In this document: positions 1,200 through 13,889 of the stretch, piece by piece | Numbering within the stretch: the first letter of the stretch is position 1 | Layout: each line of letters opens with the position of its first letter | Virus record (IMG/VR): IMGVR_UViG_3300015263_001359 | Span: 1 to 28,514 of that record | Reading direction: 5' to 3' (one strand) | DNA from: a virus | DNA length: 28,514 bases | Notes under the pieces: model-generated | Told to the model about the DNA's origin: nothing | Seen by the model: only the letters and a program-made list of their open reading frames with translations | Database searches by the model: none | Translations under genes and position numbers: made by a program

Positions 1200-1727
1200 A
1201 TGAGAAAAGTGATTTTAATATTAGCATTGATGTTGGGAGTAACATTATTTGCACAGAACAGTAAAGGAGAGAGTAATAACATTAGCTTATTCACAGCCCC
1301 TGGGACTTACATAGATTTGGGAGATTGGATTCAACCAAACTATTCGGGTGATGGATTTAACTTTGGTGTACAGTACGAGTATCAAAATAGGACTATATAT
1401 GTCAGTCCTCAGATATTTGTCTTTCCTGACCTAAATGGTTACGATTATATCCATGTCATAGGTAGGTTCGGGTTTAATAAGGAATGGGGGTTCTATAACA
1501 AGTTCAGAGTGTTCGCAGGAGGTCGGGCAGGACGTATATACAGAGAGACCGCAGGCTTTAACTATGCACTACTTGGTGCAGAGATAGGGTGTCAGTACAC
1601 GTTCAATGGGGGATTGTTCTTTCAGATTACGGGAAGCACCAACTCAAAGACAGATAGCAAGCTTTGGGGTAGTGATGACAGCCATACGGTAAACAGCGTG
1701 GACATTGGAGTAGGAATCAGATTTTAA
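1200..1727 (+). CDS. Exported outer-membrane beta-barrel-like protein
   Basis: The 175-aa product begins with a clear signal peptide (MRKVILILALMLGVTLFA, cleavage probably before QNS). The rest alternates polar and hydrophobic residues rich in Gly, Tyr and Phe, as in small outer-membrane barrels (for example YISPQIFVF-like strands). It ends VDIGVGIRF, and a C-terminal Phe is the usual BAM-recognition signature. There is no lipobox Cys. It lies in an otherwise cytoplasmic early-type operon, 1 bp after the previous stop. It would insert in the host outer membrane, perhaps altering receptor access; that role is inference. Specific family not recognised. Confidence 0.7.
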   Translation: MRKVILILALMLGVTLFAQNSKGESNNISLFTAPGTYIDLGDWIQPNYSGDGFNFGVQYEYQNRTIYVSPQIFVFPDLNGYDYIHVIGRFGFNKEWGFYNKFRVFAGGRAGRIYRETAGFNYALLGAEIGCQYTFNGGLFFQITGSTNSKTDSKLWGSDDSHTVNSVDIGVGIRF

Positions 1728-4017: not shown

Positions 4018-4037
4018 CTAAATTAGATAATATAAAT

Positions 4038-4553
4038 ATGAAGATTTTTAAAGCTATAATTGAATTTTTTAAAAACCTATTCAAGAAAAAAGAAAAGGTA
4101 GTTCCCGTTCCAGTGAACAATTTCGATGAGTGGAATGCTATGGAGAAAAATATAGCAACATTCATGAACATAATCAGGGAGGAGAGTAAACCTCTATCGC
4201 TGATTAAAAGAATAGGAGGAGTATTTTATTCCCCTTTGAATGTGATACCTGACTTAATTCCGAATAAGCTACTTTGGGAAGAGGCAAGAAAGAGATGTGT
4301 TGCTCAATTCGGTAGGGAGAAGATTTCACATGATGGCGTAGGAGTGGCTTTCAAGGTAATTTTAGATGCAGGGTATTTAGCCCCTGGCGAAATATTGGCT
4401 TACGGGTATTCAACCGCAGAATCAGTTTTAGAGGCTTGGTATAATAGCTTGAGCCATAAGAAAGTTATGTTAAGGTCTTCATATAAGTATTATGGAGTTG
4501 CGTATGTAGAGAATAACGGTAAAAAATATTATTGTGTCCTTTTTTGTAAATAA
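4038..4553 (+). CDS. CAP/SCP-superfamily domain protein
   Basis: I chose ATG 4038, because the longer frame would start inside tRNA-Lys; the leader TAAATTAGATAAT lies at 4019-4031. The 171-aa product has a basic amphipathic N terminus (MKIFKAIIEFFKNLFKKKEK). Its C-terminal region (ESVLEAWYNSLSHKK, then YKYYGVAYV) matches the CAP/PR-1 family pattern of a W-x-N-S-x2-H helix followed by the GVA strand. CAP proteins are usually secreted and Ca-dependent, but no cleavable signal is obvious here. It is an unusual phage gene. The domain call rests on that C-terminal motif; the molecular role is unknown. Confidence 0.6.
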   Translation: MKIFKAIIEFFKNLFKKKEKVVPVPVNNFDEWNAMEKNIATFMNIIREESKPLSLIKRIGGVFYSPLNVIPDLIPNKLLWEEARKRCVAQFGREKISHDGVGVAFKVILDAGYLAPGEILAYGYSTAESVLEAWYNSLSHKKVMLRSSYKYYGVAYVENNGKKYYCVLFCK

Positions 4554-4945: not shown

Positions 4946-5572
4946 ATGTTACAGAGGATATTGCTCATCATTTTATTATTTTTTCAGTTAGGGCACTCTC
5001 AGGTGACCCTCAGGAAGAACGTAAATCCTGATGCAAAGGAATTGAAACAAGATTTGAATAAGACAAAGGATACATTGATATTGTCAAGTGAGTTCAAGAT
5101 TTCAAAGGTAGAGATATTAAACGGGGAATTTAGGCAGTACACATATCCCAATAGTGGATTAGCTAATGTACATATAGGAAGATTACCTGAGGGAAGGAAC
5201 AATGTCTATGTGTACGTAAATAAAAAGATAATAGCTTTAAATATTATAATAGATAATATAGTTAGACCAACAGAGGTAAAAAAGGACTCTGTTAAGAAAA
5301 CGCAGGTAAATTTGATTAAAAATGACCCTCGTATTAAGGCTTATTGGGTGGTATATGAAGTGAATGATAACTTTGGAAGCCATGGTAGTTCTTTTATAGC
5401 TGATAGAAAAAGGGTGGATTATCTAATCCGAAAAAATATGGCAGACCTTAATACCTGCACAGGATACAGGAACACCCTTACTGTAATTGGTATAAATGAT
5501 TTGGATAGATTTAGGTATCTAAAATCATTTGGTAGAATAGAAGGAATACCGATATATAAAACAAAACGTTAA
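4946..5572 (+). CDS. Exported hypothetical protein (208 aa)
   Basis: The product starts with a signal peptide (MLQRILLIILLFFQLGHSQ, cleavage probably after HSQ or LGHS) and has no lipobox. Residues about 20-110 look beta-rich (FRQYTYPNSG, IGRLPEGRNNVYVYVN), like a small Ig or carbohydrate-binding type module. Residues 125-208 form an alpha/beta domain with WVVYEVNDNFGSHGSS and TLTVIGINDLDRF. Codons for Leu-Ala-Asn lie in an ATTAGCTAAT copy at 5158-5167. Transcribed between tRNA-Gly and the promoter at 5587. Likely periplasmic or surface; family not recognised. Confidence 0.65.
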   Translation: MLQRILLIILLFFQLGHSQVTLRKNVNPDAKELKQDLNKTKDTLILSSEFKISKVEILNGEFRQYTYPNSGLANVHIGRLPEGRNNVYVYVNKKIIALNIIIDNIVRPTEVKKDSVKKTQVNLIKNDPRIKAYWVVYEVNDNFGSHGSSFIADRKRVDYLIRKNMADLNTCTGYRNTLTVIGINDLDRFRYLKSFGRIEGIPIYKTKR

Positions 5573-5755: not shown

Positions 5756-6270
5756 TATTAGAATACGGTTAGCTTGATAACCGACTGGTCTTTGACCGAT
5801 AAGGATATAATTCTCGCAAGGGAATTGAAAGGGTGCAGTCTCACACTGCCTCGCTCTATGAGTCCATTTAAGCAAGCAACGCTTTACTGCCAGTAATTTC
5901 TCCTGGTAGCTATCTTGTCCAACCAAGGTAGATAAGAGGTAAGCCGATTGCAGTTAGTTTCCTTGTTGAGAGCAGGGATATAGAGTCTGGGGCAACGCTG
6001 AGGACGAAAGATGGTAGAGGTACCAATCACTAACAGCACACCAAAATTGGAAGAATCTGAATTAAGTAAGTTGTAGAATATGAGTTCGAACCCCACTAAG
6101 GTAAGGGCAAGTATTCAGTACAAGAGATGACGAGGGCAAAAAATCCTCAGGTAGTCTTGAAGTACCGCACAGTAGGGCTAGTAACCCGAAACGCAAGAGG
6201 CGTGTCGTATTCTGTAGACCAAAAGTTTATGGAGCGACTGTTAGGGCACGTCTCTGTGAGTTTAACCACT
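5756..6270 (+). ncRNA. Candidate large structured noncoding RNA, segment A
   Basis: No plausible coding frame fills these 515 bases. Consecutive perfect hairpins are visible: 5766-5771/5778-5783; 5809-5815/5820-5826 closed by a GCAA tetraloop; 5835-5839/5845-5849; CTGCCAG 5887-5893 with CTGGTAG 5903-5909; CTATCTT 5910-5916 with AAGGTAG 5925-5931. Composition is more GC-rich than the genes. It lies downstream of promoter P5611 and directly before a tRNA. Giant phage RNAs such as GOLLD and ROOL are known next to phage tRNAs; membership is not shown. Confidence 0.55.
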
Positions 6271-6274
6271 TTAA

Positions 6275-6348
6275 GTGGGAGTAGCTCAGTTGGTTAGAGC
6301 ATCAGATAGTAACTCTGAAGGTCGCAGGTTCAAATCCTGTCTTCTACA
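6275..6348 (+). tRNA. tRNA with GTA anticodon, unusual A33 (Tyr-like)
   Basis: Acceptor GTGGGAG/CTTCTAC, D arm GCTC/GAGC, anticodon stem TCAGA/TCTGA and T arm GCAGG/CCTGT with TTCAAAT all form. The loop is TAGTAAC, placing GTA at 6309-6311 but A instead of the near-universal U at position 33. It also has a short variable loop, whereas bacterial tRNA-Tyr is class II. A canonical tRNA-Tyr exists at 13672. Confidence 0.8.
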
Positions 6349-6720
6349 TCATAAACTAGATGTAAAAAACGCAAAGACCCTAACAGGTTTGAGATTAAAA
6401 TTACCTAATCCCATTGTCTTCGGATAATATGGGGTCACAGAGGCTCGCAAGGCGGATGTGATTTGATTGGAAACTGCACTTTATCAAGCGTTAAGAGCGT
6501 AGACACAACTCGCAAGGTTGGGGGAATGTTGATAGTCGAGTAGTTTCAAACCGATGAGAGAAATGCTACTCTCTAAAAAAAGCGGTAATGTCGGCAGACT
6601 AGACTGTACCTTCGGGTAGGTTTGGTGGATAAGAAATTAATCTTTGGGATAAGCACCCATTGAGTACGGTTTCAAAGGTGTCGTCAACGGAGGGTGTAGT
6701 CTCAGCCCGATGAAAAAAAT
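6349..6720 (+). ncRNA. Candidate structured noncoding RNA, segment B
   Basis: About 370 bases between two tRNAs with no credible gene. A 9-bp helix (CCCA plus TTGTC at 6410-6418 with GATAA and TGGG at 6423-6433, TA bulge) is capped by a TTCG tetraloop, and a second stem TACC-TTCG-GGTA lies at 6607-6618. A further stem with a Gly-Cys-Ala-Ala type GCAA turn is near 6505-6517. It may belong to the same RNA as segment A with the tRNA embedded. Confidence 0.5.
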
Positions 6721-7030: not shown

Positions 7031-7595
7031 GGACTGTCCCAAGTTTGACGAAACAAGGGGTTTAACAGATAGTACATACGAGAGATGAGTATAAAGCAAC
7101 TTGCTTCCGTTGACGTTCTTTGATAAAAATATGGGCTCGCCAGGCTTTGACAAGTTAGGCGGATTTATAATGTTCAGCACAGAGAGATAACTGTTTAAAA
7201 CTAAGGTGAAATTTGATAACTGGAAACAGACAAATTGAAGCAAACATGAGAGTTGTTCACTCAATCTTGAACGGTAGTGATGCTATCGTTGGAGACAACG
7301 CACAAGTTGAGTTAGCTTACGCTGCTTAACAACCATTGGTGAAAAAGGGATTGCAATAACCACAGTAATTTCCTATCCTCAGAATCCCTGAAAGACCCGA
7401 AGCTCAAAAGAGTAGTGAAGCTGTAGGGATAGGAAGACAATTACCTTCTTGTTGGTATAGGTCAAAACAAGTGGTGGAGCGGTGGAATTTGATTCGACCC
7501 CGATTCCCTAACATGTGGAATTCAAATACATGTAAGCTGTATAAAACGTTATAATGATGATAGTTTGGACGAGGGTTCGATTCCCTCCGAGTCCA
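7031..7595 (+). ncRNA. ssrA: Phage transfer-messenger RNA (tmRNA) candidate
   Basis: The 3' end carries GTTTGGACGAGGGTTCGATT, the tmRNA pattern before and through the T loop (stem 7571-7575/7583-7587). The 5' end GGACT pairs with AGTCC (7590-7594) and is followed by TTTGACGAAAC, resembling the tmRNA D-like region. A tag frame GDNAQVELAYAA (7291-7326) ends in TAA followed by CAACC, like bacterial ssrA tags ending in LAA. A 9-bp helix (TTCCTATCC near 7370 with GGATAGGAA near 7427) fits a pseudoknot arm. At about 565 nt it is longer than the usual 350-400, with the excess before the tag. The third acceptor pair is A-T, not the G-U needed for alanine charging. Confidence 0.7.
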
Positions 7596-7597
7596 CA

Positions 7598-7717
7598 AAG
7601 GGATGTAGCACCTTTCGCTAAATTGGGGTTAGGGGATGTGAAAAGCAAATGAACCTATTAATAGCTTATTCCTAGGCAAGACTAAACCGATTCGTAAGAC
7701 ATGAGGCTTGCCAGATT
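7598..7717 (+). other. Noncoding spacer with hairpins
   Basis: No gene is seen. GGCAAG (7675-7680) can pair with CTTGCC (7708-7713), and AAAGG/CCTTT forms just after the tmRNA end. It is probably a processing or structured spacer between tmRNA and tRNA-Thr. Confidence 0.35.
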
Positions 7718-7991: not shown

Positions 7992-8065
7992 ACTCCGATA
8001 ACTCAGCTGGTTAGAGTGCCACTCTTACATAGTGGAAGTCCTTGGTTCGAATCCAAGTTGGAGTA
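7992..8065 (+). tRNA. tRNA-Val(TAC)
   Basis: Acceptor ACTCCGA/TTGGAGT, anticodon stem CCACT/AGTGG with loop CTTACAT and anticodon TAC at 8026-8028, T arm CTTGG/CCAAG with TTCGAAT. Discriminator A, no CCA. Confidence 0.95.
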
Positions 8066-8079
8066 CTAATAATTTAATA

Positions 8080-8460
8080 ATGAGTAATTGTAAACATTGT
8101 AGTAAAGTTTTAACTAAAAAAGCAAATAAATATTGTAATAAAGATTGTTACTTTAATGCTACGTTTCAGTTATCCATAGAAAAATTCTATAAAGGATTAA
8201 TTTGTGATAATAAAACCATAAAGAAAATATTAATATTTATAAATGGGGAAAGGTGTGTTGAATGTACGCAAGGAAATGAATGGAATGGGTTACCCTTAAC
8301 ATTAGAAGTAGACCATATAGATGGTAATTCAGATAATAATGACCCTAACAATGTAAGGTTACTTTGCCCTAACTGCCACAGTCAGACTCCTACTTCAAGA
8401 GGTAAAAATGAAAGGAAGAATACAAAGAGGAATAAGTATTTAAGGAATTATAAATCATAA
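8080..8460 (+). CDS. HNH endonuclease inside the tRNA island
   Basis: I use ATG 8080, since the longer frame would begin inside tRNA-Val. The 126-aa product has an N-terminal zinc knuckle (MSNCKHCSK, then YCNKDC). A classical HNH domain follows: CVECTQGNEWNGLPL, LEVDHIDGNSDNN and RLLCPNCHSQT, with the catalytic DH pair and CxxC zinc ligands. It resembles the small free-standing HNH nucleases common in phages. The gene is more AT-rich than its neighbours and sits alone between tRNA-Val and micro-genes, consistent with a mobile homing-type insertion. Target site unknown. Confidence 0.85.
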   Translation: MSNCKHCSKVLTKKANKYCNKDCYFNATFQLSIEKFYKGLICDNKTIKKILIFINGERCVECTQGNEWNGLPLTLEVDHIDGNSDNNDPNNVRLLCPNCHSQTPTSRGKNERKNTKRNKYLRNYKS

Positions 8461-8810: not shown

Positions 8811-8884
8811 GGTCTCATAGCTCAGTTGGTTAGAGCACCTGACTCATAATCAGGGGGTCGGAGGTTCAAGCCCTTCTGGGACCA
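8811..8884 (+). tRNA. tRNA-Met or Ile2 (CAT), second copy
   Basis: Acceptor GGTCTCA/TGGGACC, anticodon stem CCTGA/TCAGG with loop CTCATAA and anticodon CAT at 8845-8847, T arm GGAGG/CCTTC with loop TTCAAGC. All helices are intact; discriminator A. The acceptor stem is the same as that of tRNA-Asp at 6945. Confidence 0.94.
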
Positions 8885-8905
8885 CAAATTACCTAATTCA
8901 GATAC

Positions 8906-9082
8906 ATGTACAAAACAAAACTTCTAAAAAGAGATATATCCCAAATAGACAAGCTTAACAAAGAGATAGAGGAGCATGAGGCTCTTGGCTATGTAGCCGA
9001 CCAAATACAGTTCATCCCCTTTGATTCCAAGGTTACGGTTGTGGCAGTAATGCAAAGGGATTTCACCCCAGGTTTAAATTAA
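8906..9082 (+). CDS. Small hypothetical protein (58 aa)
   Basis: ATG 8906 opens 58 codons ending at TAA 9080-9082. Residues 1-27 form a charged helix (MYKTKLLKRDISQIDKLNKE), suggesting a short coiled coil, followed by a beta-like region (KVTVVAVMQRDF). The stop lies in the leader TAAATTAAATAAT that abuts the next start. Function unknown. Confidence 0.6.
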   Translation: MYKTKLLKRDISQIDKLNKEIEEHEALGYVADQIQFIPFDSKVTVVAVMQRDFTPGLN

Positions 9083-9087
9083 ATAAT

Positions 9088-9615
9088 ATGGCTACAGAAT
9101 TTTCTAGGTTAAAGATTAGATTAAATAAGTTCACCTCAATAATGGGTGGACTTTTGTTTTTGATGCCCCTTATACTATGGATGATAGATGGGCAGATTAG
9201 GATTTCCATAAGCAACTACGCATATATGGAAAACAACGAGTGGTATATAGCCCTTATGACCATGGCAGGGGCTGTATTCATAATGGATGGGTCCATATGG
9301 AACAGACGATGGTACAATATAATACTTGGATGTTCTCTTATAGGTATAGCAACGACTCCACATCTTGATGGTCCGATAACAACAGCTTTACATTATATCT
9401 TCGCAGCGATTTTCTTCGCAGGCAGTGTCACTTCAATGATTGTATTCAGTAGTAAAGAACAGCGGTCATTAAAGATTTTTTTAGCTATGGCGGTAGCTGT
9501 AGCCATGTCCTTAAATGCCATTATTCCTAATAACGGGCTCTTCTGGGCTGAGTGGATTGGGATGATTCCAATATGCTTTCACTTTATGGGTGAAGTGTAC
9601 GGAAAGTTGGATTAA
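9088..9615 (+). CDS. Six-TM integral membrane protein (175 aa)
   Basis: ATG 9088 directly follows TAAATTAAATAAT (9075-9087). About six hydrophobic segments are visible, near residues 17-35, 50-68, 74-92, 99-120, 128-146 and 150-170, joined by short loops. A conserved-looking acidic residue lies in a loop (PHLDGPITTALH). There is no signal peptide. It would reside in the host inner membrane. I cannot assign a family; roles such as superinfection exclusion or lysis control are only possibilities. Confidence 0.7.
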   Translation: MATEFSRLKIRLNKFTSIMGGLLFLMPLILWMIDGQIRISISNYAYMENNEWYIALMTMAGAVFIMDGSIWNRRWYNIILGCSLIGIATTPHLDGPITTALHYIFAAIFFAGSVTSMIVFSSKEQRSLKIFLAMAVAVAMSLNAIIPNNGLFWAEWIGMIPICFHFMGEVYGKLD

Positions 9616-9679
9616 CTGTTTTAAAAAATTATTTTTTTGTAAATTTTATCGACGAAAGGTAAAATATTAGTATAGGTTT

Positions 9680-9711
9680 TTGGTCATGTGGATTAATCTC
9701 CATATATTTGC
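9680..9711 (+). promoter_or_regulatory. Promoter of the lipoprotein operon, P9704
   Basis: TTTG (9680-9683), 20-bp spacer, TATATTTG (9704-9711). The first ATG is 20 nt downstream at 9732. An imperfect 8-bp inverted repeat (9643-9650 with 9658-9665) lies just upstream but lacks a T run. Confidence 0.85.
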
Positions 9712-9731
9712 AACTACTTAAAACCTTAGAA

Positions 9732-11078
9732 ATGAAAAGACTATTATTATTACTATTCGTACTTATCTTTATTGGGTGCCAAACGGAACCAATTGAAGTA
9801 CTACAAGAAGCCCCGTTGCAAAAAGCTGACTTTAAGAAATCATTGCCAGCCAAAGCCGACTCTATCCAGATTGCAAAAAATGTATTCAAAAAGGTACATG
9901 CAAATGGTGTAGTTGAGGTAACCCACTACGATGATGTAGATGAACTACAGGAAAAAACAACCTACAATAGGGAAACAACAGACTACTATGCATCTGCATC
10001 CGTATCCCCTTCGATAACTGTAGGAACCCACAAAGAAACCGTTGTTATAACTGGAGGACCTTTCCCTGCTGAGCCAGGATGGGTTGGATTTGGTAATGGA
10101 CAGCGTAAAGTAAGAAGCGAGATTGTATCTTGGACTACTGACCGAATAGAGGTTATAGTGCCTGCAGGAGCTTACTCAGGGGTAGTTAACATTTACGACA
10201 TATCAGACAACACTACAATTGTGGCACAGACTACCAATTCACTTACTGTGAAATATGGTATATACGCTGCAAATATTTATGATTCTTCTACTCAGACATC
10301 TACTTGGGAGCGTATAGCTTTTGACGGACCAGATGTTGTGTGGCATCCTGAAATAGGACAATATGATTCTAGTATTCTTAGTTTAGTTCAAGAGGCTTTT
10401 GATGCTTGGACCCAAGTTAGCGGTATGAACTGGAGTATTGGAGACCCCGTAGCTATTGATGCCAATAGTTCAGCTTCCGAAGGTAACTTCGTATTTGGAT
10501 TTGGACCCTCCCCAGGAGCAGCACATAATTCTATGGCTTATACTCCTTGTGGTGATGGAACTTTTTATATATCTGGTGGTAGGGTAGTATTCGATGAGAA
10601 AAGAGATTGGGTAGCTGCTTTACATGAATTTGGTCACGCTATAGGGCTTCCCCATAGCAATAATTCAGGAAGTTGTATGGTCCCAACTGGGGGAAGAAGT
10701 ATATCAACTTGGGATGCTGAAGGTGCTTCAGATAAAGTAGATTGGTCTGTAGCCAATACACCTTCTTGTGCAACTCCATTTGAAACAGGTACTTATGTAC
10801 CAACTTACACATATTACAGAGATGCCGATGGTGACGGGTATGGTAACCCAAACAATATTACATCTACTACAGATACAACAGCACCATCTGGATATGTATC
10901 AGATAATACAGACTGCGATGACAATGATGCTTCTGTAAACCCAGGGATGACTGAAATCCCAGGAAATGGTAAAGACGATGACTGTAACCCTAGAACAAAA
11001 GATAGGGTTAAAGGCGGAGGCTCTGGAGGGGGCGGAGGCGGAAACGGTAACGGTCATGGTCCAAAGAAAAATAATTAA
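9732..11078 (+). CDS. Lipoprotein metzincin metalloprotease with TIG and MopE-like domains
   Basis: I start at ATG 9732, 20 nt after the promoter. The 448-aa product has a lipoprotein signal ([16 protein letters not shown], lipid Cys16). Residues about 85-165 look like an IPT/TIG Ig-like domain ([28 protein letters not shown]). A catalytic domain follows with [11 protein letters not shown] at 298-308, the metzincin HExxHxxGxxH zinc site with Glu299 as base, and Met316 as the likely Met-turn. Residues 361-425 are a Ca-binding MopE/thrombospondin-3-like tail ([27 protein letters not shown]), then a Gly-rich linker. It should be an envelope-anchored protease, likely on the cell surface. Few phages carry such a gene. 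Substrate unknown. Confidence 0.85.
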
Positions 11079-11103
11079 ATTAACTAATCTAAAAAAATAA
11101 ATT

Positions 11104-11970
11104 ATGAAAAAATTATTATTATTTTTATCAATCTTATTGGTGTTTGGATGTTCAACAGATGAAGCTGTACAATCTCCAGCAGAAGCAGAGCTTCAGACTG
11201 CAAGTATGAGACTTTTACAACCAAGATTACCAAAAAGGACCAACATTATCCTTAGACCTACAGCTGTGAACAACAATCCAGTCGGTAGATACATGGAAAC
11301 CCCAATACCTTATGATGGTATATTGGAGGTAATTCCAAGCGATGGGCTTGTGGACTGGGATAATGACGGTGATTTGGATTTGATTACACAAGAGTACGGA
11401 TGTGAGACAGCGTTCAGACAATACGTATTCTATGTATCAATAGACCAAGACCCTAACCAAAAAGTGGCAATCTGCTACACAGCTTCAAGAGCTACTATCT
11501 TAGGCTTTGAGGACGTAAACGGTGACGGGTACCAAGATGTCCTTCTATATGGAGGTAAAACAAGAGCTTACAACGCTGAGCTTGACATTTATGGGAACTA
11601 CACTATTGAGAACAACAGTTATGTATTTGAACCTGTAAGCTATTTTAACGTAGGTATCAACACTGAGGGGCAATACCCACTCTCTACAACAGAGATATTA
11701 GCTAGTATGGAAGTATCTGAGGTAGAAAACGGACAACCTAACAACTTGGTCTGGGACCTAAGTGCTTATGGATATCATGCTTACACATTCTATGTTGATT
11801 TCTGGGAAGGTCAGAATATTGGAGACGGACAGTACTATGGTCAGACTTGGACCTATGGATTCTGGGGATTCTATTTCAATGACAGACTTGCAAGGAATCA
11901 GGAATATACTATAAGTTTTAGATACATGGACAATTGTGACAGACTAAATGTAACCTTTATAAACAACTAA
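11104..11970 (+). CDS. Lipoprotein with FG-GAP-like calcium repeats
   Basis: The 288-aa product has a lipoprotein signal (MKKLLLFLSILLVFGC, Cys16) and then STDEAV. Two Ca-binding loops of the FG-GAP/VCBS integrin type are clear: DWDNDGDLDLIT (residues 84-95) and FEDVNGDGYQDVLLYG (135-150). The C-terminal part (YTFYVDFWEGQN, TWTYGFWGFYFND) is aromatic and beta-rich. It is the second gene of the P9704 operon, 25 nt after the metzincin. Probably a surface protein for binding sugars or proteins; the precise role is unknown. Confidence 0.75.
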   Translation: MKKLLLFLSILLVFGCSTDEAVQSPAEAELQTASMRLLQPRLPKRTNIILRPTAVNNNPVGRYMETPIPYDGILEVIPSDGLVDWDNDGDLDLITQEYGCETAFRQYVFYVSIDQDPNQKVAICYTASRATILGFEDVNGDGYQDVLLYGGKTRAYNAELDIYGNYTIENNSYVFEPVSYFNVGINTEGQYPLSTTEILASMEVSEVENGQPNNLVWDLSAYGYHAYTFYVDFWEGQNIGDGQYYGQTWTYGFWGFYFNDRLARNQEYTISFRYMDNCDRLNVTFINN

Positions 11971-11974
11971 AACG

Positions 11975-12562
11975 ATGAAGAAAATTCTATTAACACTTTT
12001 ATTATCATTTGGTTTTTTGGCATGCACCAATGAGGCTGTGACCAATGATATCACCACAGAGGACCTTAAATCCCCTACAACAGCAGCCAAACAAGGATTA
12101 ACTGACGGAACAAAAGGAGTGGATTGTGATGCATTCGTATTACCCCCTTCTGACCAATTTTACACTTACTACAACAATGCAGGAACAGTAAGTTTATTGG
12201 AGTTTAGATTAAACGAACTAAACAACAATGTGTATTTTAGGTTCTATCCAAAAAATGGAAAGTTCCAAGAAGTTCTTACTGCTTCTAGGTTAACAGGTAA
12301 TATTTTATATGCTGTTCGTGATGCAGATGGAAACCTACTTGAACCATATAATTCAGGAGAAGATATCTTCAGAATTAGAATAGTTGGTATCAATGGAACT
12401 AATTATGACCAAACAGTTTGCTTTAACCCTACAAGTTATGTAAGTGCAATTTATTTAAAAGGTAAACAAGCATTGCCTGAGGGCGATTTTGAAGTGGAAT
12501 TTATAGACTATACACAATTTGGTGTAGCTAAAAAATATTTTAGTAACCCTTATACCTTTTAA
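11975..12562 (+). CDS. Lipoprotein, unknown family (195 aa)
   Basis: Signal MKKILLTLLLSFGFLAC places the lipid Cys at 17, followed by TNEAVTND. The mature part is beta-rich (YNNAGTVSLLEFRLNEL, VYFRFYPKNG) and has two further Cys (near residues 50 and 133) that could form a disulfide. It starts 4 nt after the FG-GAP gene, so it is in the same operon. It shares with the other three lipoproteins the acidic residue at Cys+3 and Leu-Lys/Gln at Cys+14. Function unknown. Confidence 0.7.
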   Translation: MKKILLTLLLSFGFLACTNEAVTNDITTEDLKSPTTAAKQGLTDGTKGVDCDAFVLPPSDQFYTYYNNAGTVSLLEFRLNELNNNVYFRFYPKNGKFQEVLTASRLTGNILYAVRDADGNLLEPYNSGEDIFRIRIVGINGTNYDQTVCFNPTSYVSAIYLKGKQALPEGDFEVEFIDYTQFGVAKKYFSNPYTF

Positions 12563-12565
12563 ATT

Positions 12566-13183
12566 ATGAAAAAGATAATATACGTTTTTTTAGCGAGCTT
12601 TGTCATATCAATGATATATTATGCTTGTACAGTAGAGCCAGTTCAGGCAACCGTTACAACTGCAAACCTGCAATCAAAGGGTGGTCCTAACAAACCACAA
12701 TACATTACATTGGAAGAAGCTCAGGTCTTAATAGATGAGGCAGTGAAAGCTGCGGTTGACCAAGTATATATCCATGATTTTGGCAGTGAGACGGGAAATA
12801 TGGAATTTAGAAATATATTTTATGGAAGAAGACAAACTGCACCAAGTCAAGAAGGTATTTATTTTCTAGAAGAATTAAATGATAGAGATTGGGAGATTGA
12901 TATTGCTGGTGCTGGTGGATTTACTAGTATATGGTTAGATGGAAATGGCGGTGATAGTGATAACAATATAACATTATCTACCGATGGTAGAGGTAATTTT
13001 AGCAAATATTGGCAAACCCAAAACTGGATTATGTTTACACAATATAAAGGTATCTATAATTTCCAATACCTAAAAACATTTAACACTAATGACGAGGCAA
13101 AAGCTTATTTTAGTAGTGCTGGATTTAGCAGAGTTGGCAGTATTTATAAGACACCAGACGGTACTTTAAAAGTCACTTATTAA
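12566..13183 (+). CDS. Lipoprotein, unknown family (205 aa)
   Basis: Signal MKKIIYVFLASFVISMIYYAC places the lipid Cys at 21, followed by TVEPVQATV. After a Gly/Pro linker (SKGGPNKPQYI) comes a short helix (LEEAQVLIDEAVKAAVDQVY), then a beta-rich domain (FTSIWLDGNGGDSDNN). It ends the operon, 3 nt after the previous stop. The 3' half is more AT-rich than the first three genes. Membrane-anchored on the outer side; function unknown. Confidence 0.7.
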   Translation: MKKIIYVFLASFVISMIYYACTVEPVQATVTTANLQSKGGPNKPQYITLEEAQVLIDEAVKAAVDQVYIHDFGSETGNMEFRNIFYGRRQTAPSQEGIYFLEELNDRDWEIDIAGAGGFTSIWLDGNGGDSDNNITLSTDGRGNFSKYWQTQNWIMFTQYKGIYNFQYLKTFNTNDEAKAYFSSAGFSRVGSIYKTPDGTLKVTY

Positions 13184-13198
13184 ATTTTTGTTAATAAA

Positions 13199-13230
13199 TT
13201 TGCATATCTCGCAAAATAATACTACTTTTG
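13199..13230 (+). promoter_or_regulatory. Promoter of the micro-protein operon, P13223
   Basis: TTTG (13199-13202), 20-bp spacer, TACTTTTG (13223-13230), first ATG 20 nt later. An AAATTT repeat lies on each side of the stretch just upstream (13185-13201). Confidence 0.8.
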
Positions 13231-13250
13231 CTTTTTAAACTTATATTACC

Positions 13251-13340
13251 ATGAAAGAAGATAATAAAGTAAATAACGTAGAATTCCCTAAACCACCTGA
13301 AAATACTTTAGGTCAAGGGGACGATAATCAAGTAGAATAA
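13251..13340 (+). CDS. Acidic micro-protein 1 (29 aa)
   Basis: The first frame behind promoter P13223: MKEDNKVNNVEFPKPPENT onward, ending DDNQVE. It is acidic, Asn/Pro-rich and probably disordered. The next start follows its stop by 1 nt. A strong promoter, tight spacing and a terminator after four such frames argue that it is translated. No family recognised. Confidence 0.6.
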   Translation: MKEDNKVNNVEFPKPPENTLGQGDDNQVE

Positions 13341-13341
13341 C

Positions 13342-13422
13342 ATGAGACTATCAACAAAACCTATGAAAACTCCTCCAGAATTAGAGGATGATGATGAAGA
13401 TGATAATAACGTTATCGAGTAA
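13342..13422 (+). CDS. Acidic micro-protein 2 (26 aa)
   Basis: MRLSTKPMKTPPELEDDDED continues to NNVIE. Nine of the last 14 residues or so are Asp/Glu, giving a basic head and a strongly acidic tail. Spacing is 1 nt upstream and 2 nt downstream. Could act as a nucleic-acid mimic or inhibitor; that is speculative. Confidence 0.55.
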   Translation: MRLSTKPMKTPPELEDDDEDDNNVIE

Positions 13423-13424
13423 TC

Positions 13425-13502
13425 ATGAAAACAAGAATTAAAGCAAAGAAAACAACACCTAAGGTACCTAAGTACAAAAAAGGTGGTAAATGTAAAAAAT
13501 AA
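13425..13502 (+). CDS. Basic micro-protein 3 (25 aa)
   Basis: MKTRIKAKKTTPKVPKYKKG continues to GKCKK. About half the residues are Lys/Arg, with one Cys, so nucleic-acid binding is likely. It is opposite in charge to its two upstream neighbours. The next ATG starts 1 nt after the stop. Confidence 0.55.
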   Translation: MKTRIKAKKTTPKVPKYKKGGKCKK

Positions 13503-13503
13503 A

Positions 13504-13605
13504 ATGACAACATTAATAAATACATATTGGTCTTATAGTAATTGTTCGTTTAGTAACGAATCAGGACAGGTATGTAGAAAAATTAATGATACAAATGATG
13601 GATAA
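13504..13605 (+). CDS. Micro-protein 4 (33 aa)
   Basis: MTTLINTYWSYSNCSFSNES continues to GQVCRKINDTNDG. It is neutral, Ser/Asn-rich, with two Cys that could pair. It is the last gene before the terminator at 13632. Function unknown. Confidence 0.5.
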   Translation: MTTLINTYWSYSNCSFSNESGQVCRKINDTNDG

Positions 13606-13631
13606 CCATTAAATTAGATAATTTGAACTAT

Positions 13632-13661
13632 AGCCCTGTCAGAAATGATGGGGCTTTTTTT
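13632..13661 (+). terminator. Rho-independent terminator of the micro-protein operon
   Basis: A 10-bp stem (13632-13641 with 13646-13655) closed by a GAAA tetraloop is followed by seven T (13655-13661). It separates the micro-protein unit from the second tRNA block. Confidence 0.88.
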
Positions 13662-13671
13662 ATGTCTAAAA

Positions 13672-13757
13672 GGGAGTGAGTTCACTATTGGTTTGTGGAG
13701 GCGGTCTGTAAAACCGTAGCCCCGACATGGGTGTTGGTTCGATTCCAACGACTCCCA
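13672..13757 (+). tRNA. tRNA-Tyr(GTA), class II
   Basis: Acceptor GGGAGTG pairs with GACTCCC except for a G-G mismatch at 7-66. Anticodon stem GCGGT/ACCGT with loop CTGTAAA gives GTA at 13708-13710. A long variable arm (CCC-GACA-TGGG) is present, as in bacterial tRNA-Tyr. T arm GTTGG/CCAAC with TTCGATT; discriminator A. Confidence 0.93.
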
Positions 13758-13889
13758 CGGAGGTTAAGATAGGTCAGCGTTAACCCTAGGATAGTTGCGT
13801 TGATGGCTCGTTAAAAACGAAAGACTATCGGTGAGCCGACATTCAAACAAACGCTCATGAGACCGCTCATGAGACCGTACATGATGAAA
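13758..13889 (+). other. Structured noncoding spacer with direct repeat
   Basis: No gene is seen. GATAGT (13792-13797) can pair with ACTATC, GGCTC with GAGCC, and TCGTT with AACGA over AAA. The 12-mer GCTCATGAGACC occurs twice in tandem (about 13851-13876). It may be a derived RNA or a processing spacer. Confidence 0.4.

What the first reader, a model, noticed from the sequence alone, without database searches (positions are those of the whole stretch)
9680..13183. Four-gene lipoprotein cassette with a shared post-cysteine module
All four consecutive products are lipoproteins and share a pattern despite unrelated mature domains: an acidic residue at Cys+3 and Leu-(Gln/Lys) at Cys+13 or +14 (LQK, LQT, LKS, LQS). 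This looks like a common sorting or assembly signal. A phage operon that decorates the host surface with a metzincin, an FG-GAP protein and two unknowns could change receptor exposure, adhesion or predation, and may act as one system.
Basis: partly seen in the sequence, partly recalled or inferred. Interest (0 to 1): 0.8.

Follow-up and report, generated by a model that had tools for sequence, protein, structure and literature searches.

The report
Phage operon of four host-anchored lipoproteins
A virus of Flavobacteria carries, inserted in its tRNA array, one operon for four proteins built to be lipid-anchored in the infected cell's outer membrane, one of them a protease, probably to change the cell's surface against further phages.

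Summary
Four consecutive genes (9732-13183) encode predicted lipoproteins with acid at Cys+3 and Leu-(Gln/Lys) at Cys+13/14. Three meet the standard lipobox rule; the fourth (IYYA|C) narrowly fails. Acid at +3 fits the known Bacteroidota lipoprotein export signal and occurs in 31% of 170 flavobacterial lipoproteins. Leu-(Gln/Lys) at +13/14 occurs in 1 of 170, sits on otherwise unrelated bodies, and could not be tested in homologues.

The genes look like one transcription unit: a Bacteroidota promoter (9679-9710), gaps of 25, 4 and 3 bp, no internal promoter, then a terminator (13632-13655). The block lies between tRNA-Met and tRNA-Tyr of an array collinear with Cellulophaga phage phi4:1, where that gap is 213 bp and gene-free: an accessory insertion. 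Protein 1 is an IPT-matrixin with intact zinc site, related to flavobacterial T9SS-secreted proteases but with a lipid anchor instead; Maribacter phages Molly and Colly carry a different lipidated matrixin. No close relatives of proteins 2-4 were found.

Best reading: lipoproteins made during infection that alter the host surface, most likely excluding other phages or preventing re-adsorption. Function is inferred. A new variant of a known kind.

The parts
9679..9710 (+). Bacteroidota-type promoter TTTG-N20-TATATTTG, directly upstream of P1
   Evidence: 8 such sites in the window against 0.92 expected, 0 of 100 shuffles reach 8; none lies between 9711 and 13198; consensus from PMC6847099
9732..11078 (+). 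P1: lipoprotein with IPT/TIG-like domain, matrixin (M10) protease domain, MopE metal-binding motif and Gly-rich tail, 448 aa
9777..9824 (+). P1 lipidated Cys and shared N-terminal stretch [16 protein letters not shown]
9993..10250 (+). P1 IPT/TIG-like domain (approximate, by alignment to the TIG domain of a flavobacterial T9SS protease)
   Evidence: not found by Pfam in P1 itself
10293..10688 (+). P1 matrixin catalytic domain; zinc site [11 protein letters not shown] (10623-10655) and Met-turn SCMVP
   Evidence: PF00413, 7.6e-7, above cut-off; collagenase 3, 3.6e-5 over residues 188-319
10911..10997 (+). P1 MopE putative metal-binding motif
   Evidence: PF11617, 3.9e-9
11104..11970 (+). P2: lipoprotein, 288 aa, with one calcium-loop repeat of FG-GAP/XAC2610 type (about 11500-11547)
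   Evidence: all below curated cut-offs
11149..11199 (+). P2 lipidated Cys and shared N-terminal stretch CSTDEAVQSPAEAELQT
11975..12562 (+). P3: lipoprotein of unknown family, 195 aa, possibly all-beta
   Evidence: structure model of low confidence
12023..12073 (+). P3 lipidated Cys and shared N-terminal stretch CTNEAVTNDITTEDLKS
12566..13183 (+). P4: predicted lipoprotein (borderline lipobox IYYA|C), unknown family, 205 aa
12626..12676 (+). P4 Cys and shared N-terminal stretch CTVEPVQATVTTANLQS
13199..13230 (+). next promoter TTTG-N20-TACTTTTG, just after the last cassette gene
13632..13655 (+). terminator-like hairpin with T run, before tRNA-Tyr
8886..13671 (+). accessory insertion between tRNA-Met (8811-8885) and tRNA-Tyr (13672-13758): DUF7103 membrane protein (9088-9615), the lipoprotein operon and short ORFs
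   Evidence: the same tRNA neighbours in phi4:1 are 213 bp apart with no annotated gene between; for DUF7103

Best explanation
This is an accessory ('moron') operon of a phi4:1-like phage of Flavobacteriia, inserted in the tRNA array and read from its own host-type promoter. Its four products are exported by the host's Sec and lipoprotein pathways, lipidated at Cys, sent to the outer membrane and, through an acidic export signal at Cys+3, largely flipped to the cell surface. There the anchored matrixin protease (P1) trims host surface proteins, while P2-P4 bind or cover outer-membrane proteins. The net effect I think most likely is loss of usable phage receptors on the infected cell: exclusion of competing phages and no loss of progeny to the dying cell or its fragments. 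Shown here by sequence: gene order, lipoprotein features, promoter and terminator matches, insertion site, zinc site, N-terminal resemblance. Inferred: transcription as one mRNA, surface side of the membrane, protease activity, targets and the exclusion effect.
For: Operon and insertion: (collinear tRNA order in phi4:1; 213 bp against 4786 bp at the Met-Tyr gap). Phage identity: A1-like protein 54% and DnaB 41% identical to phi4:1/phi17:2. Lipoprotein features. Acid near Cys matches the export signal shown to be sufficient for surface display in Capnocytophaga, with working versions from Flavobacterium and Bacteroides (PMC5080379). Intact matrixin site. The best cellular relative found is a T9SS-secreted IPT-matrixin, so P1 carries a lipid anchor where its relative carries a secretion domain. 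A different lipidated matrixin occurs in Maribacter phages. Phage lipoproteins that block receptors are known: T5 Llp on FhuA (PMC9586334); a surface S-layer lipoprotein makes Bacteroides phage-resistant (PMC12548429).
Against: No experiment and no expression data. P1, P3 and P4 lack the adjacent acidic pair of the minimal Capnocytophaga signal, so surface exposure is uncertain for them. Llp works from the periplasmic side and is small, unlike these 195-448 aa proteins. P2-P4 have no known fold, and single-sequence models of P3 and P4 were of low confidence. No second phage with the cassette was found, so there is no evidence of conserved co-occurrence.
Confidence: 0.45

Rival explanations
1. 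The protease is the working part: P1 on the host surface (or on vesicles and debris after lysis) digests extracellular matrix or neighbouring cell-surface proteins so that progeny escape or spread; P2-P4 are carriers or unrelated.
For: Intact matrixin site. The authors of the Molly phage study proposed matrix digestion for its lipidated matrixin (PMC8776804). The MopE motif suggests metal binding outside the cytoplasm.
Against: A lipid anchor keeps the enzyme on the producing cell; secreted host relatives use T9SS instead. Does not explain three further lipoproteins in the same operon.
Confidence: 0.2
2. Four independent accessory genes collected in a permissive gap; the common N-terminus reflects the host's export signal and some exchange or duplication of the leader region, with no joint function.
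For: Acid at +3 is common in flavobacterial lipoproteins (31%). Bodies unrelated. The tRNA array holds other unrelated inserts (CAP protein, HNH-like protein, GOLLD, tmRNA).
Against: One promoter, gaps of 3-25 bp. Four adjacent lipoproteins are unusual: 83 loci (1.41 Mb) of related phages gave 13 candidates and no run of neighbours. Leu-(Gln/Lys) at +13/14 in all four.
Confidence: 0.22
3. Inner-leaflet lipoproteins that face the periplasm and inhibit periplasmic enzymes or incoming phage tails, with P2 like the XAC2610 group.
For: P2 matches NCBIfam XAC2610-related (7e-4, below cut-off) and PDB 4qtq weakly (E about 0.5). T5 Llp is periplasmic.
Against: The match covers about 40 residues round a calcium loop and overlaps an FG-GAP match. 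Acid at +3 argues for surface export.
Confidence: 0.08
4. Virion components: proteins of the particle, or lipoproteins that travel with virions.
For: phi4:1 gp165, a Band-7 lipoprotein, carries a note 'part of structural' in its record.
Against: No PHROG structural family matches P1-P4. The operon is in the tRNA array, not in a structural block. Signal peptides send the products out of the cytoplasm, where tailed phages assemble.
Confidence: 0.05

Closest known systems
Lipidated matrixin of Maribacter phages Molly and Colly (Colly1_9)
   Same: Flavobacterial phage, lipobox, acid at Cys+3, matrixin zinc site
   Different: 199 aa with no IPT or MopE part, single gene not in a lipoprotein operon, similarity limited to the zinc-site stretch, no Leu-Gln at +13/14
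T5 Llp / T1-type Cor superinfection-exclusion lipoproteins
   Same: Phage-encoded outer-membrane lipoproteins made in infection that affect the host surface (PMC9586334)
   Different: Small, single, periplasmic, jam a TonB-dependent receptor; no sequence comparison was made
Flavobacteriales T9SS-secreted IPT-matrixin proteases (L119, L101)
   Same: TIG plus matrixin order; alignment over P1 residues 63-340, pairwise E 2e-11
   Different: Secreted with a T9SS C-terminal sorting domain and no lipobox; P1 has a lipobox and a MopE/Gly-rich tail instead
Bacteroidota surface lipoproteins with lipoprotein export signal
   Same: Acid close to Cys (Cys+3 when Cys is 0, position +4 in the papers' numbering), polar residues before it (PMC5080379)
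   Different: Only P2 has the acidic pair; the Leu-(Gln/Lys) at +13/14 is not part of the described signal
Bacteroides thetaiotaomicron S-layer lipoprotein BT1927
   Same: A surface lipoprotein that lowers phage infection (PMC12548429)
   Different: Host gene, phase-variable, about 100 kDa; no sequence comparison was made

Membership tests
Bacterial lipoproteins (signal peptidase II substrates) | Positive N-terminus, hydrophobic core, lipobox with invariant Cys | tested here: met
   P1-P3 meet the PS51257 rule; P4 misses it by Tyr at -3 only and is borderline
Bacteroidota surface lipoproteins (export signal) | Acidic residues preceded by a polar or basic residue at about Cys+3/+4 (Cys = 0) | tested here: inconclusive
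   One acid at +3 in 4/4, adjacent acidic pair only in P2
Bacteroidota surface lipoproteins (export signal) | Proven surface exposure | not testable with these tools
   needs cell labelling or protease shaving
Matrixin (M10) metalloproteases, for P1 | HExxHxxGxxH zinc site and Met-turn in a matrixin-like domain | tested here: met
   [11 protein letters not shown] and SCMVP; PF00413 above cut-off; collagenase-3 match over the catalytic domain
FG-GAP / integrin-type propeller, for P2 | Several FG-GAP repeats above curated cut-off | tested here: not met
   one repeat at 16.4 bits against a cut-off of 22.1
XAC2610 group, for P2 | NCBIfam NF047539 above cut-off | tested here: not met
   20 bits against 35
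Llp/Cor superinfection-exclusion lipoproteins | Small lipoprotein that binds the phage receptor and blocks adsorption | not testable with these tools
   size differs (195-448 aa); binding and exclusion need experiments
phi4:1-like (Lightbulbvirus-related) flavobacterial phages, the carrier | Shared core genes and tRNA array order | tested here: met
   A1-like 54%, DnaB 41%, collinear tRNA order with phi4:1; membership of the genus itself is not claimed
Known anti-phage defence systems | Match to a PADLOC model | tested here: not met
   no match for P1-P4

The most novel reading that the evidence does not exclude
The four lipoproteins form one phage-made complex on the host surface, brought together by the common acidic/Leu-Gln leader, which remodels the envelope of infected Flavobacteria (receptor shaving plus masking). 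It would be a multi-component counterpart of single-protein exclusion lipoproteins such as Llp, and the leader a new assembly or sorting tag.
Probability: 0.13. Interest if true: 0.75.

Novelty: new variant of a known kind. Interest (0 to 1): 0.5.

Why it matters
Phage lipoproteins that change the host surface are known mainly as small single proteins of coliphages. A flavobacterial phage with a whole operon of large outer-membrane lipoproteins, including a lipid-anchored relative of secreted host proteases, suggests that phages of Bacteroidota use the phylum's own surface-lipoprotein export route. If so, the cassette gives ready substrates for studying that still unknown export machinery and for testing how phages protect an infected cell from rivals.

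Tried and rejected
Search for the cassette or its proteins in other phages: P1-P4 gave no match in IMG/VR (this search finds close relatives only), none in 50,697 phage records by translated search, and P1 none in 45 related virus records. Search in Flavobacteriaceae/Flavobacteriales genomes: P2 only FG-GAP-type repeats, P3 one marginal hit, P4 none. Most P1 hits in genomes are MopE motifs only. A crAss-like origin suggested by DNA polymerase hits was dropped: A1-like and DnaB point to phi4:1. PADLOC gave nothing. Single-sequence AlphaFold2 of P3 and P4 gave mean pLDDT 41 and 36, too low for fold searches, which were therefore not run. Duplication of whole genes was rejected: the bodies are not alike.

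Full report
WHAT THE WINDOW IS. The window is a complete IMG/VR virus record of 28,514 bases, most likely a fragment of a larger phage. The right part carries replication genes on the minus strand: DnaB, DNA polymerase, primase, exonuclease and an A1-like DNA transfer protein. The closest isolated phages found are Cellulophaga phages phi4:1 and phi17:2 (Lightbulbvirus, 145 kb): A1-like protein 54% and DnaB 41% identical. The left part holds an array of 18 tRNAs with other genes between them.

OBSERVATION. Four consecutive plus-strand genes at 9732-11078, 11104-11970, 11975-12562 and 12566-13183 encode predicted lipoproteins. P1-P3 meet the PS51257 lipobox rule (pattern from memory); P4 narrowly misses it through Tyr at -3.

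IS IT MORE THAN CHANCE. I collected 170 lipoproteins from 1.94 Mb of Flavobacteriales genome stretches. Acid at +3 occurs in 31%, the highest acidic share of positions +1 to +7, as expected from the Bacteroidota export signal. L-(Q/K) at +13/14 occurs in 1 of 170. Local alignment of the first 40 mature residues puts P3-P4 above all background comparisons and P1-P2 above all but 1.2%, while P1-P3 is ordinary and the other pairs are weak; beyond residue 22, P1-P2, P2-P3 and P3-P4 are no more alike than shuffled sequence. So the common N-terminus is real but uneven: two resembling pairs plus a general acid signal. Leader exchange or duplication within the operon is the simplest origin (inference).

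OPERON. The Bacteroidota promoter consensus TTTG/TAnnTTTG (PMC6847099) occurs 8 times in the window against 0.92 expected. One copy ends 21 bases before the P1 start codon; none lies inside the cassette; the next follows P4 at 13199-13230. Gaps between the genes are 25, 4 and 3 bases, and a strong terminator-like hairpin is at 13632-13655. One transcript is inferred.

INSERTION. The tRNA order Ala-Lys-Ile-Gly-Met-Asp-Thr-Val-Arg-Met-Tyr-Ser-Asn-Trp-Phe is the same in phi4:1, apart from tRNAs called in the window alone (a Tyr inside the GOLLD RNA, a second Ser, Cys). In phi4:1 tRNA-Met and tRNA-Tyr are 213 bases apart with nothing annotated between; here they are 4,786 bases apart and hold a DUF7103 membrane protein, the operon and short ORFs. 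The DUF7103 protein is shared with Flavobacterium psychrophilum phages (42-46%). The block is therefore an accessory insertion, or less likely was lost from phi4:1.

PROTEINS. P1 has an intact matrixin site (PF00413 7.6e-7; collagenase 3 at 3.6e-5 over residues 188-319) and a MopE motif. Its best cellular relative found is a Flavobacteriales protein with TIG, matrixin and T9SS sorting domains, aligned over P1 residues 63-340 with pairwise E 2e-11. P1 lacks the sorting domain and has a lipobox, so the protease appears re-routed from T9SS secretion to a lipid anchor (inference). Maribacter phages Molly and Colly carry a different, shorter lipidated matrixin (PMC8776804) similar to P1 only round the zinc site. 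P2 has one calcium loop of FG-GAP/XAC2610 type below curated cut-offs. P3 and P4 have no family; single-sequence models are of low confidence.

LIPOPROTEINS IN RELATED PHAGES. A scan of 83 related virus loci (1.41 Mb) gave 13 candidates, some of them evidently false or duplicates, and no run of neighbours. Complete Colly_1 has three convincing lipoproteins, all with acid at Cys+3; the scanned part of phi4:1 (9000-145865) has three candidates, with their first acid at +2 or +4. Neither genome has an adjacent pair or the Leu-(Gln/Lys) position. Thus acid near Cys is general and four lipoprotein genes in a row is unusual.

MECHANISM. The export signal of surface lipoproteins in this phylum was shown to be acidic residues shortly after Cys, sufficient for surface display, with working versions from Flavobacterium and Bacteroides (PMC5080379). 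The flippase was still described as unknown in 2025 (PMC12578637). On that basis P2 is the best candidate for surface display, and P1, P3 and P4 are plausible ones. Known precedents for effect are T5 Llp, which blocks the receptor FhuA (PMC9586334), and the Bacteroides S-layer lipoprotein BT1927, which gives phage resistance (PMC12548429). I therefore favour receptor removal or masking on the infected cell, at 0.45; matrix digestion by P1 and unlinked accessory genes are the main rivals.

VERDICT. Observation confirmed; interpretation partly supported; new variant of a known kind; interest 0.5.

Noticed in passing
window 6195-6708 (+): GOLLD RNA (Rfam RF02032, 176 bits, E 3e-48) with a tRNA-Tyr gene at 6275-6348 inside it; no GOLLD was found in the matching tRNA array of phi4:1.
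   Followed up: partly
window 7133-7598 (+): tmRNA by Rfam (RF00023, 61 bits) between tRNA-Asp and tRNA-Thr; ARAGORN did not call it, and the tag peptide was not determined.
   Followed up: no
window 1200-1727 (+) and 4946-5572 (+): Two further proteins with signal peptides by eye and no family; the first ends in a beta-signal-like '...VDIGVGIRF' and may be a small outer-membrane barrel, so the phage may put more than lipoproteins into the host envelope.
   Followed up: partly
window 4029-4553 (+): CAP-domain protein (PF00188, 2.4e-7) between tRNA-Lys and tRNA-Ile, another insert in the tRNA array.
   Followed up: no
window 8032-8460 (+): HNH-type protein by eye (zinc-finger and HNH-like motifs) between tRNA-Val and tRNA-Arg; a possible agent of gene insertion in the array.
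   Followed up: no
L305:27809-28588 (phi4:1 gp165) and L211:1598-2482: Band-7/SPFH lipoproteins in phi4:1 and a related virus contig; the phi4:1 protein is noted in its record as part of the structural proteins.
   Followed up: partly
L307:6923-8929 (Colly_1): A protein annotated as tail fiber begins with a clear lipoprotein signal (CSIDKDP) and has DUF7151 and collagen repeats; it may be a surface lipoprotein rather than a tail fiber. An annotated OmpA-family protein follows.
   Followed up: partly
window 13251-13500 (+): Several very short ORFs rich in acidic or basic residues after the cassette, behind their own promoter (13199-13230).
   Followed up: no
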